Assembly (NCBI RefSeq): GCF_003339525.1
Contig: NZ_CP031124.1
Location: 620,001-684,000, forward strand
Direction: 5' to 3'
DNA from: Ephemeroptericola cinctiostellae
Lineage (GTDB): Bacteria > Pseudomonadota > Gammaproteobacteria > Burkholderiales > Burkholderiaceae
DNA: 64,000 nt
Part shown: positions 12,920 through 22,657 of the stretch, piece by piece
How positions within the stretch are numbered: position 1 is the stretch's first letter
How the letters are laid out: each line of letters opens with the position of its first letter
Translations under genes and position numbers: made by a program
The notes under the pieces: generated by a model
Told to the model about the DNA's origin: nothing
The model's input: the letters and a program-made list of their open reading frames with translations, nothing else
The model's database searches: none

Positions 12920-13609
12920 TTAATATGCAATGTTTTCGTTAAATTGTATTTCAGGAGGCGAACAGAAAAACAGTTTTTTGTGTTGGCAGCTCGTTAAAGC
13001 ATCGATGGTGAGGTTGTTGTGTTCGTGTTTTGCCCAGCAAAGTGATGCGAGAATATCTGCTGCTTGGATGCCAAGAGAGCTTTTGCTGTCGTATGGGCTC
13101 GTGTTTAGCATGGCTGGTGTGCCTAAGTTGTTTAATGAGGCTTTTTCCAACAACATTTGTTCAAGGTACTGGTGCAGTGAGTGCTTATAAGAGGTTTTAA
13201 TCGAACGAGCATCGGGCAGAAAATCAATCGTGCGACAGCGGGACATGACTTCAAGCAGCAATAATTTGGTCATGTAATTGTATAAGCCGTTTGGATTGTT
13301 CTGAAAGGCGATGTTAACCTTTTCCTTGTTCACTGTGATGGCTTTAAACTGCGTGTCTAGGCATTTGCTTTGTAGTTTAATCAAGGCTTCGACGAAGGCC
13401 TTGCGCTCGATGGACGATAGTTCGACAGATTTCAACTCATTATTTAGTGGACGTTTGCGGTTCTTGTAAATACCGCGAACGATGCGTTCAAGATGATGAT
13501 GTTGATGGGCTGGAATGATTATGGCTGCTAAGGTTAAAAATCGACTGGAACCGTTTTCTAATTGCCAGCCAAGGTCACCGCTTTCGTCCAAATAAATGTG
13601 TGCGTGCAT
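12920..13609 (-). CDS. DUF3800 domain protein
   Basis: A 229-residue protein of the DUF3800 family, which spans the whole length. The family hallmarks are the N-terminal YLDESGD (residues 6-12) and the C-terminal LGIQAADILASL (179-190); acidic residues D8, D134 and D185 could form an RNase H-like active site, but that fold and any nuclease activity are inferred, not shown. DUF3800 genes have scattered distribution, often near mobile or defence genes, and several conserved structured RNAs have been reported next to them. Here the ATG at 13609 lies only 27 nt after the U-run of a terminator that ends a promoter-driven RNA (13636-13775). No ribosome-binding site is obvious. The gene is more AT-rich than hemB, which follows 9 nt later. 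Confidence 0.8.
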   Translation of the reverse strand: MHAHIYLDESGDLGWQLENGSSRFLTLAAIIIPAHQHHHLERIVRGIYKNRKRPLNNELKSVELSSIERKAFVEALIKLQSKCLDTQFKAITVNKEKVNIAFQNNPNGLYNYMTKLLLLEVMSRCRTIDFLPDARSIKTSYKHSLHQYLEQMLLEKASLNNLGTPAMLNTSPYDSKSSLGIQAADILASLCWAKHEHNNLTIDALTSCQHKKLFFCSPPEIQFNENIAY

Positions 13610-13635
13610 TATTGAGTTTTGAGTATTGCGGTCAT

Positions 13636-13666
13636 AAAAAAACGGCTTCTATGAAGAAGCCGTTTT
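13636..13666 (-). terminator. intrinsic terminator in front of the DUF3800 gene
   Basis: On the minus strand, AAAACGGCTTCT, loop TCAT, AGAAGCCGTTTT, then a run of seven U (13642-13636). The 12-bp stem plus U-run points leftwards only; the other side lacks a U-run. It ends the candidate RNA and would have to be read through to transcribe the DUF3800-hemB operon from the promoter at 13782-13810. Confidence 0.85.
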
Positions 13667-13775
13667 CAAAAGAATTGGTGCTCAGGTTTGACGCACTTCG
13701 AGTACGCTTACGATTATGACGGCATTTGTCGCAAAATGGCTGAGCGTTTGATTACTTACACCAAACCGTCACTAC
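13636..13775 (-). ncRNA. candidate structured RNA upstream of DUF3800 gene
   Basis: A transcript of about 140 nt is predicted from the consensus promoter at 13782-13810 to the terminator at 13636-13666. It has no usable reading frame (the only ATGs give 2-3 codons). Self-complementary segments include GACGG (13770-13766) with CCGTC (13722-13718), GGTTTGGTG (13767-13759) with the complement ending in CAAACC (13693-13685), GCTCAG (13745-13740) with CTGAGC (13685-13680), and GCGTACT/AGTGCGT (13707-13691) allowing G-U pairs. Some pairings exclude each other, so a pseudoknot or a switch is possible. Known background: several DUF3800-associated RNA motifs have been found by comparative genomics, function unknown. 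Whether this is one of them, an antitoxin-like RNA or a regulatory leader is open. It lacks the SRP RNA core, so it is not 4.5S RNA. Confidence 0.6.
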
Positions 13776-13781
13776 GCATTG

Positions 13782-13810
13782 ATTATAAGAAAAGTCATTT
13801 TGTTTGTCAA
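13782..13810 (-). promoter_or_regulatory. perfect consensus sigma70 promoter
   Basis: On the minus strand TTGACA (13810-13805), exactly 17 nt, TATAAT (13787-13782). It begins 5 bp after the ffh stop codon and fires leftwards into the candidate RNA. Two perfect hexamers with optimal spacing predict very strong, constitutive transcription, expected start near 13775. Confidence 0.85.
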
Positions 13811-13815
13811 CACAA

Positions 13816-17254: not shown

Positions 17255-18801
<1,547 letters not shown>

Positions 18802-18867
18802 GAGATAGAAAAGCCATAAACGTCCACACTTATCGGAATGTTAAACAAAAGAACAGTAAATCCTAAT

Positions 18868-18943
18868 GGGGGATTAGCTCAGCTGGGAGAGCACCTGCTT
18901 TGCAAGCAGGGGGTCGTCGGTTCGATCCCGTCATCCTCCACCA
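18868..18943 (+). tRNA. alaT: tRNA-Ala (anticodon TGC)
   Basis: A 76-nt cloverleaf with acceptor GGGGGAT/ATCCTCC, D-loop AGCTCAGCTGGGAGAGC, anticodon loop CTTTGCAAG, T-loop GGTTCGATCCC and an encoded CCA. It is the first tRNA in the 16S-23S spacer. Confidence 0.97.
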
Positions 18944-18962
18944 AGAATGTTGGATCGAAGAC

Positions 18963-19039
18963 GGGTCTTTAGCTCAGTTGGTTAGAGCACTGTGTTGATA
19001 ACGCAGGGGTCGATGGTTCGAGTCCATCAAGACCCACCA
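18963..19039 (+). tRNA. ileT: tRNA-Ile (anticodon GAT)
   Basis: A 77-nt cloverleaf with acceptor GGGTCTT/AAGACCC, D-loop AGCTCAGTTGGTTAGAGC, anticodon loop TTGATAA, T-loop GGTTCGAGTCC and encoded CCA. It lies second, after tRNA-Ala; the order is the reverse of the common Ile-Ala arrangement. Confidence 0.97.
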
Positions 19040-19184
19040 CATGACTGTTCTTAAAGTATTTATTGTTGTTTAATTTCGACTTGTCTTATTCCAAGTGAAT
19101 CATTAAGTATCCGCATTGACAAGTGCTGATGCTTAATCCTTTACGAAGGATTATAGCGCAAACGCGCTGGCAGCAATGCCCGGC

Positions 19185-19224
19185 TGATCTTTAACAACTA
19201 GAAACCAAGCAAATTTAACAGTGA
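19185..19224 (+). promoter_or_regulatory. spacer boxA and left arm of the 23S processing stem
   Basis: TGATCTTTAACAA (19185-19197) is a good boxA match. The segment 19198-19224 (starting CTAGAAACCAAGCA) pairs with 22429-22453 beyond the 23S gene, forming the RNase III stem for 23S maturation. Confidence 0.7.
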
Positions 19225-19442
19225 TAATATGATGTGTTCAAGGAATTGAATGCATGTTTTAACACGGGTTAGATTGCATCAAAATAAAGTAGTTCTCAAG
19301 AAGTAGTATGAAGAATACGACGTCGATTCAGCAATGAATTGGCACTTGAAATTACGGCAAACAAACCGACACACATACTCATGTAAATGTGTGTGTCAAA
19401 ACTAGTGCGAACACTTTATGACCTGAGCGATCAGAGTTATAA

Positions 19443-22317
<2,875 letters not shown>

Positions 22318-22541
22318 ATAACTGTGGTTGTTCCAGTATAAGCGTCGCACTAATCGATGATCGAAAGATCACGGTTTGTTTGATTGATGTAATTTAACTC
22401 GTTAAAACCCATCCTAATCAGATGGATGTCACTGTAAATATGCTTAGTTTCTAGTCTGTTGGACGAAAGTTCAACAAAAGACGCCCGATTTTATGTTGGC
22501 TGTTTGAGGTTTCAACTACTCATAACAGGCAATGCAGGCTT

Positions 22542-22657
22542 TGCCTGACGACCATAGCAAGTTGGTCCCACTCCTTCCCATCCCGAACAGGACAGTGAAA
22601 CGACTTAGCGCCAATGATAGTGCGGATTCCCGTGTGAAAGTAGGTCATCGTCAGGCT
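22542..22657 (+). rRNA. rrf: 5S ribosomal RNA
   Basis: About 116 nt closed by the stem TGCCTGACGACC and GGTCATCGTCAGGC, with the conserved TCCCATCCCGAACAGG. It is the last gene of the operon and is followed by a terminator. Confidence 0.95.

What the first reader, a model, noticed from the sequence alone, without database searches (positions are those of the whole stretch)
12920..13815. Promoter-RNA-terminator unit in front of a DUF3800 gene, arranged like a type III toxin-antitoxin locus
Seen: a perfect TTGACA-17-TATAAT on the minus strand (13810-13782), about 140 nt without a reading frame but with several long self-complementary segments, an intrinsic terminator (13666-13636), then a DUF3800 gene 27 nt later without an evident ribosome-binding site. 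Known: type III toxin-antitoxin loci have promoter, RNA, terminator, nuclease gene in this order, and conserved RNA motifs of unknown function have been found next to DUF3800 genes by comparative genomics. Inference: the RNA and the DUF3800 protein form one functional unit, with the RNA acting as antitoxin, guide, substrate or leader. Conserved acidic residues (D8, D134, D185) hint at a nuclease.
Basis: partly seen in the sequence, partly recalled or inferred. Interest (0 to 1): 0.8.

Follow-up and report, generated by a model that had tools for sequence, protein, structure and literature searches.

The report
Structured RNA paired with RNase-H-like nuclease
In front of a predicted RNA-cutting enzyme gene this bacterium carries a small folded RNA with its own start and stop signals; related bacteria and viruses keep the two together, so they probably work as a pair, perhaps as an enzyme and its RNA keeper.

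Summary
In detail: a perfect sigma-70 promoter, a roughly 140-nt RNA, a terminator and a DUF3800 gene lie in that order. The RNA is a divergent relative of Rfam's DUF3800-I, below its threshold (27.1 of 44.2 bits). A model built only from other organisms' RNAs finds it as the sole hit in the window and genome. Such RNAs stand directly upstream of 80 of 81 related genes with an open frame; the exception is a contig edge. Stems covary, and the window's subgroup adds a supported pseudoknot. RNA and protein diversify together. The protein has a predicted RNase HII fold. In 11 of 15 more distant loci other DUF3800 RNAs lie downstream on the opposite strand, suggesting action in trans. RNAs also occur with absent or broken genes. 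Best reading: a two-part RNA-nuclease unit working like, but not shown to be, a type III toxin-antitoxin. Function is untested; a published Legionella screen (PMC7811196) counts against DUF3800 being a simple toxin.

The parts
13782..13810 (-). sigma-70-type promoter TTGACA-17-TATAAT
   Evidence: 12/12 consensus, only exact match in the window; promoter-like pairs in front of 30 of 37 related RNAs
13631..13776 (-). structured RNA, divergent DUF3800-I type, pseudoknotted subgroup A; start of transcription inferred from the -10
   Evidence: RF02969 full length 27.1 bits at 13771-13631, E 0.11 over all families; R1 model 27.4 bits, sole hit in window and genome; 85% identical to Hydromonas duriensis against 50% just upstream
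13765..13772 (-). 5' strand of pseudoknot helix (GTGACGGT)
   Evidence: 8/8 pairs with 13723-13716; own-versus-swapped test p = 8e-5 over 9 distinct helices
13716..13723 (-). 3' strand of pseudoknot helix, in the P3 loop (GCCGTCAT)
13676..13763 (-). P1 closing helix, 13763-13760 with 13679-13676; in this RNA a local hairpin of the same strand competes with it
   Evidence: 4/4 pairs; the equivalent P1 covaries at 7 of 7 pairs in group B; competing hairpin in the single-sequence fold
13680..13745 (-). P2 helix, 13745-13740 with 13685-13680
   Evidence: 6/6 pairs; changes on both sides at 3 of 6 pairs in group B
13687..13735 (-). P2' helix, 13735-13732 with 13690-13687, and P3 base CGA/TCG (13731-13729 with 13713-13711)
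   Evidence: 4/4 and 3/3 pairs
13691..13707 (-). P4 hallmark hairpin GCGTAC/GTGCGT (13707-13702 with 13696-13691)
   Evidence: 6/6 pairs; changes on both sides at 4 of 6 pairs in group B
13638..13667 (-). intrinsic terminator stem, U-run following
   Evidence: 13-bp stem in the fold; 31 of 32 aligned positions identical to H. duriensis; terminator-like hairpin in 14 of 16 group A loci
12920..13609 (-). DUF3800 gene, predicted RNase HII-like nuclease

Best explanation
A two-part RNA-protein unit. Shown by comparison: a separately promoted, terminated, structured RNA (DUF3800-I-like core P2, P2', P3, P4, closed by P1, plus a pseudoknot in the window's subgroup) is inherited as a unit with a protein of predicted RNase HII fold. 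Inferred: the RNA is made in excess from its strong promoter, while the nuclease gene after the terminator is made sparingly by read-through or a weak start. The RNA binds the nuclease and holds it inactive. Loss or displacement of the RNA, for example during phage infection or loss of the element, frees the nuclease, which then cuts RNA or RNA/DNA hybrids. It would thus work like a type III toxin-antitoxin built from different parts. The inhibitor direction, the trigger and the substrate are all inferred.
For: RNA directly upstream in 80 of 81 related loci with an open frame; the exception L089 has 15 nt of upstream sequence. RNA and protein distances correlate, r 0.91 over 37 loci, and the two RNA types fall on the two sides of one branch of the protein tree, support 100/99. 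Promoters, and terminator-like hairpins in 14 of 16 group A loci. Elsewhere the RNA is downstream on the opposite strand (11 of 15 more distant loci; no Rfam match in the other 4) or downstream on the same strand (15 stretches), which argues for action in trans. RNA without gene: L108, L149, L153, L154 and 3 of 3 Mycoplasma prophage records examined. RNA beside an interrupted or truncated gene: L010, L123 and L102, L112. RNase HII fold. Occurs on small plasmids, in phages and in viral contigs.
Against: No experiment. In a Legionella pneumophila transposon screen a strain-specific accessory DUF3800 gene was called essential alongside antitoxin genes (PMC7811196, section 7 read), the opposite of what a toxin gene should do; its subfamily and RNA are unknown to me. 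A nuclease that merely needs an RNA cofactor would give the same linkage. L023, a related gene with two stops inside, has no RNA hallmark on its locus. 18 of 21 group B loci show no terminator-like hairpin between RNA and gene. One solo RNA (L166) has only 3 of 6 P4 pairs, so some solo RNAs may be decaying relics.
Confidence: 0.4

Rival explanations
1. RNA as activating cofactor: the DUF3800 nuclease needs the structured RNA to be active, as part of an anti-phage ribonucleoprotein, with or without a target-recognising part.
For: An RNase H-fold nuclease beside a structured RNA. DUF3800 proteins are reported as accessory parts of some type V and VI CRISPR loci (PMC10910872 and PMC12669027, passages read). 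PADLOC candidate-defence model PDC-M04A matches the window protein, P0015 and the L115 protein. Linkage is as strict as an obligate cofactor would give. The P3 tip in group B is variable in sequence and length.
Against: The variable P3 tip is short (7 model columns) and much of it can pair within P3, so there is no long guide-like segment; in group A the P3 loop is used by the pseudoknot. RNAs beside absent or broken genes are not expected to persist, unless they are relics. PDC-M04A did not match P0039 or the L143 and L155 proteins.
Confidence: 0.29
2. Reverse polarity: the RNA is harmful or addictive and the DUF3800 nuclease binds or processes it, so the protein is the antidote.
For: A strain-specific DUF3800 gene was called essential in a Legionella transposon screen (PMC7811196); an RNase HII-like fold could process an RNA.
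Against: RNAs occur with no PF12686 match on the record: 0 of 7 records, and 1 of 4, the one (L163) being a normal pair.
Confidence: 0.1
3. Cis-acting leader: the RNA is the 5' untranslated region of the DUF3800 mRNA and regulates it by attenuation or protein feedback.
For: In groups A and B the RNA is directly upstream on the same strand, hallmark 74-120 nt before the first conserved protein motif; 18 of 21 group B loci have no terminator-like hairpin in between.
Against: DUF3800-V, -VII and -IX RNAs lie downstream on the opposite strand (11 of 11 matches); a third arrangement has gene then RNA; RNAs without a gene.
Confidence: 0.08
4. An ordinary trans-acting base-pairing small RNA that merely sits beside the gene.
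For: Promoter and terminator of its own.
Against: Near-absolute linkage and co-diversification with the gene; conserved multi-helix structure.
Confidence: 0.04

Closest known systems
DUF3800-I RNA (Rfam RF02969; described by Weinberg and colleagues 2017, recalled, paper not held)
   Same: Core P2, P2', P3, P4 with the AAGCG...CG hairpin, terminator, neighbouring DUF3800 gene
   Different: Below the gathering score (27.1 of 44.2 bits); across subgroup A a pseudoknot and a closing P1 are supported in place of the family's 5' hairpin, although in the window a local hairpin can compete
Type III toxin-antitoxin (ToxIN; abstract start in the search listing, PMC8860590)
   Same: Order promoter, RNA, terminator, nuclease gene (the order for type III is recalled)
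   Different: Single RNA without repeats; protein matches RNase HII; no activity known
RNase HII
   Different: A profile of the family matches no PDB sequence at E 10; the gene lies beside a structured RNA
DUF3800 accessory proteins of some type V and VI CRISPR loci (PMC10910872, PMC12669027; passages read)
   Same: DUF3800 with RNase H-type fold
   Different: Here a gene with its own RNA and no such neighbour seen in the annotated or listed loci I looked at; I ran no separate CRISPR search

Membership tests
DUF3800-I RNA, RF02969 | Score at or above the gathering threshold (44.2 bits) | tested here: not met
   27.1 bits, E 0.11 over all families; window, L003, L005 and L009 26-29 bits, E 1.3-4.3 in that search
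DUF3800-I RNA, RF02969 | Core helices P2, P2', P3, P4 and terminator, full-length match | tested here: met
   Model positions 1-115 aligned; R1 hit E 8.5e-6; pairs
DUF3800-I RNA, RF02969 | Separate 5' hairpin before P2 | tested here: inconclusive
   A local hairpin is in the single-sequence fold, but P1 and the pseudoknot are supported across subgroup A
DUF3800-I RNA, RF02969 | Adjacent DUF3800 gene | tested here: met
Type III toxin-antitoxin | Antitoxin RNA made of tandem repeats | tested here: not met
   No repeat in the RNA; the only array, score 31, lies in the spacer at 13610-13628
Type III toxin-antitoxin | Toxin of the ToxN/CptN/TenpN kind (recalled) | tested here: inconclusive
   Only Pfam match up to E 10 is DUF3800 and the structural matches are RNase HII; a family missing from those lists is not excluded
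Type III toxin-antitoxin | Terminator between RNA and nuclease gene | tested here: met
   14 of 16 group A loci
Type III toxin-antitoxin | Protein toxic alone, neutralised by binding the RNA | not testable with these tools
   needs an experiment
Pfam DUF3800 (PF12686) | Score over curated cut-off | tested here: met
   48.1 against 21 bits
RNase HII | RNase HII fold | tested here: met
RNase HII | Sequence similarity to known RNase HII | tested here: not met
   0 PDB sequences at E 10 with the profile of A1
RNA-guided nucleases (TnpB/Cas type) | Variable guide segment in the RNA | tested here: inconclusive
   Only the short P3 tip and a 4-column joint are variable among unpaired runs; commonest-letter share paired 0.80, unpaired 0.72
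PADLOC candidate defence system PDC-M04 | Component A model | tested here: met
   8.7e-13; other components of the system were not tested

The most novel reading that the evidence does not exclude
A new kind of RNA-controlled nuclease: an RNase HII-type enzyme held by a pseudoknotted RNA in a mobile addiction or anti-phage module, with solo copies of the RNA in phages and prophages acting as decoys that disarm host DUF3800 nucleases.
Probability: 0.25. Interest if true: 0.87.

Novelty: new variant of a known kind. Interest (0 to 1): 0.62.

Why it matters
The DUF3800 motifs were, as far as I recall, described without a function, and the paper listings and passages I saw assign none. This locus gives a compact, testable pair: a defined RNA, a confidently modelled RNase HII-like protein and clear predictions. 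If the RNA restrains the nuclease, that would be a new effector fold for RNA-protein toxin-antitoxin or defence systems and would explain the RNA's spread on phages and plasmids. The solo RNAs would become candidate counter-defence elements. The window and three relatives fall below Rfam's threshold, so RNAs of this subgroup are probably under-annotated.

Tried and rejected
Rfam at gathering thresholds misses the RNA. RF02969 over 399 genomes of the order found 1 genome and not the window's own. One search's looser pattern gave 8 stretches, none confirmed by the R1 model, and 4 of the 23 stretches were not confirmed either. BLAST of one group B RNA against phages and E. coli genomes found nothing. 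A profile of the protein found no PDB sequence. My first pseudoknot test misparsed L003 and scored it zero; it was repeated with L003 corrected, rows added and one row per distinct helix. A first guess at terminator arm coordinates was off and gave 8 of 13 pairs; the arms reported come from the fold. I had meant to write that unpaired positions are the most constant; a recount showed the opposite on average (paired 0.80, unpaired 0.72), so the case against a guide is weaker and I moved the odds from 0.42/0.27 to 0.40/0.29. A cis-leader, a guide RNA and a plain base-pairing small RNA were considered and placed as rivals.

Dropped rows and limits: the 81 related loci include near-identical prophage copies; they hold 43 distinct proteins, 42 with RNA. 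Ten more distant loci (below 100 bits) were counted apart there. Ten loci could not be parsed and are not in the 91: L010, L018, L023, L024, L030, L032, L033, L035, L083, L102. Of these, L018 and L102 have the RNA beside a broken gene, L023 has a gene with stops and no RNA hallmark, and L083 begins inside the gene. Structure counts used 28 group B RNAs with a structure drawn from one of them, which favours that structure; the measure 'further pair types' did not beat shuffles (37 against 35.2, 137 of 500). The Mantel p values are the minimum possible with 5000 permutations, and related sequences are not independent. Of the 7 Mycoplasma phage records matched, 3 were fetched. Many stretches are the same contigs as. 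Among the 15 gene-then-RNA stretches, L151, L157 and L159 show open frames of only 90-133 aa; not followed up. L108 has a 13-bit chance-level match to the protein profile on its other strand, without the conserved first motif. Paper searches cover only the held open-licence library; of the 11 papers holding 'DUF3800' 10 were listed, I read passages or a section of six, and saw four only as listings.

Full report
What is there. Reading the minus strand, a perfect TTGACA-17-TATAAT lies at 13810-13782, followed by about 140 nt without a gene, a 13-bp terminator stem ending near 13638, and a 229-codon DUF3800 gene at 13609-12920. The promoter is the only exact match in 64 kb. The locus lies between genes that I recognise by eye from their translations as ffh and hemB (no family search was run on them). 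In Hydromonas duriensis, the closest named relative (75% over residues 1-213), hemB is also downstream but the upstream gene differs. No second DUF3800 match was found in the genome.

The RNA belongs near a known family. Rfam at permissive settings aligns it full length to DUF3800-I at 27.1 bits, below the 44.2-bit threshold, E 0.11 over all 4227 families. Of the four closest relatives fetched, three carry the same sub-threshold match directly upstream of their gene (L003, L005, L009; 26-29 bits, E 1.3-4.3 in that larger search, so not significant one by one). The fourth, L004, shows the hallmark by eye. A covariance model R1, built from 28 group B sequences that include neither the window nor H. 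duriensis, finds the window RNA as its only hit in 64 kb (27.4 bits, E 8.5e-6) and in the whole 2.7-Mb genome (E 3.6e-4); E-values of such models are rough. In 369 genomes of the class it finds two, the own genome and G473, both of which have a related gene.

Conservation. Between the window and H. duriensis the aligned positions of the RNA are 85% identical and of the terminator 97%, against 50% for the 100 nt upstream, 35% for the spacer, 70% for the gene and 79% for hemB. The gene's codon positions are 76, 87 and 43% identical, which indicates purifying selection on the protein.

Linkage. Among 91 parsed DUF3800 loci, 81 score at least 100 bits with the profile of the window's relatives. 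80 of these have the RNA hallmark directly upstream on the same strand; the remaining one, L089, begins 15 nt before the motif. They come from chromosomes, from plasmids of Mycetohabitans, Paraburkholderia, Acinetobacter, Pseudomonas and Thiothrix, from a phage and from viral contigs. Parsing needed an open frame. Of the unparsed loci, L018 and L102 have the RNA with a broken gene, while L023, a related gene with two stops inside, has no RNA hallmark. So no intact related gene was seen without the RNA, but one broken gene was. The 15 more distant loci fetched carry other Rfam motifs, DUF3800-V, -VII or -IX, in 11 cases, one of them (L007, 36.5 of 37.4 bits) just under threshold. In all 11 the RNA lies beyond the gene's 3' end on the opposite strand. 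No Rfam DUF3800 match was found for L031, L033, L034 and L035.

Structure. Group B (28 RNAs): 27 pairs, 94.9% of cells paired against 33-42% when slid by 1-3 columns; 17 pairs change on both sides, and 104 cells are doubly changed against 29 in shuffles. P1 changes on both sides at 7 of 7 pairs. The measure 'further pair types' did not exceed shuffles, and the structure was drawn from one member. Group A, which includes the window, adds a helix between the 5' end and the P3 loop. Its nine distinct sequences, from 19 rows, pair better with their own partner than with swapped partners (17.4 against 13.5, p 8e-5). Row by row, shuffled loops reach the same score in 0.1-6% of cases, leaving out the misparsed L003. 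In the window all six assigned RNA helices pair fully. Against this, the single-sequence fold prefers a local hairpin overlapping P1, so the 5' part may switch or resemble Rfam's 5' hairpin.

Is there a guide? Paired columns of group B are on average more constant than unpaired ones (commonest letter 0.80 against 0.72). The linker GTAAA, the UAA before P4 and the P4 loop are nearly constant. The tip of P3 (0.39-0.54) and a four-column joint (0.39-0.75) are variable. The P3 tip is short, and much of it can pair within P3, so I do not read it as a guide, but a short recognition loop is not excluded.

Co-diversification. RNA and protein distances correlate at r 0.91 (37 loci; 0.90 within each group), and groups A and B are the two sides of one protein-tree branch with support 100/99. 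Related sequences are not independent, so this shows joint inheritance rather than physical contact.

Separate expression. 30 of 37 RNAs have a promoter-like pair of at least 9/12 just upstream, 4.1 expected. 14 of 16 group A loci have a terminator-like hairpin between RNA and gene, but only 3 of 21 group B loci.

RNA without gene. Searching viral contigs for the RNA rather than the gene gave 27 stretches. 25 have DUF3800 coding sequence downstream, counting a short remnant in L123 and a split gene in L112. L127 ends 122 nt on and shows the same start as L123. L108 has none beside the RNA, only a 13-bit chance-level match elsewhere. A second pattern gave 23 stretches, 19 confirmed by R1: 16 with a gene (15 upstream of the RNA, three of these with short frames; L155 downstream) and three without (L149, L153, L154; 103, 84 and 70 bits for RF02969). 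Whole-record searches for PF12686 found none in the 7 records behind L108, L149, L153, L154, L123, L127 and L010. That search also missed the gene remnant in L010, which is 43% identical to the L155 protein, and the virus records may be fragments, so this is not proof of absence. The three Mycoplasma prophage records fetched, of seven matched, have the RNA (98, 91 and 78 bits) and no PF12686 match. Their P4 pairs are 5, 5 and 3 of 6, so the last looks like decay. A Streptococcus satellite phage has RNA, terminator and DUF3800 gene in the window's order.

Interpretation. The varied placement of the RNA speaks for action in trans. The RNA can exist without an intact gene, while an intact related gene without the RNA was not seen. 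This fits an RNA that keeps a nuclease in check, but also a nuclease that is useless without its RNA. The published Legionella result, where a strain-specific DUF3800 gene was called essential next to antitoxin genes (PMC7811196, section 7 read), points the other way. I therefore put the restraining-RNA model at 0.40 and the cofactor model at 0.29.

Compared with the known. It works like a type III toxin-antitoxin by layout only; the repeat feature was tested and not met, and the fold found is RNase HII. It is a relative of DUF3800-I RNA below Rfam's threshold. The elements that I have not seen described are the pseudoknotted subgroup, the near-strict linkage and co-diversification, the specific RNase HII match, and the RNAs without a gene in phages. 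The papers that I saw assign no function (searches; open-licence library only; the original description of the motifs was not held).

Noticed in passing
L164, L165, L166 (Mycoplasma prophages), 2481-2591: DUF3800-I RNA downstream of a replicative helicase gene, with no PF12686 match on the record; in L164 an AbiEii-type gene lies beyond it.
   Followed up: partly
L108:13276-13299 (-): Phage contig with a group B-type RNA beside an ORF that by eye looks like an M15-type peptidase, without DUF3800 beside it.
   Followed up: partly
L153:2899-3045 (-): Solo DUF3800-I RNA between an Abi_2/AbiD gene and a HicB-like antitoxin gene on a viral contig.
   Followed up: partly
L016 (Acinetobacter pittii plasmid pApiA45Pb): A reverse transcriptase gene with a helix-turn-helix gene lies next to the DUF3800 unit; a Pseudomonas gene list also has DUF3800, TIR and reverse transcriptase genes in a row (PMC6722718, passage read).
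   Followed up: no
L015 (Acinetobacter pittii plasmid pIEC338SCOX): The DUF3800 unit sits on a 10.5-kb plasmid that also carries VapBC and blaOXA-72 as annotated.
   Followed up: no
L006, L007, L008, L026, L027, L029: DUF3800-V, -VII and -IX RNAs on the opposite strand abut the gene's stop codon within about 10 nt, as if sharing a two-way terminator.
   Followed up: partly
window 17255-22656: An rRNA operon (16S, two tRNAs, 23S, 5S) on the plus strand.
   Followed up: no
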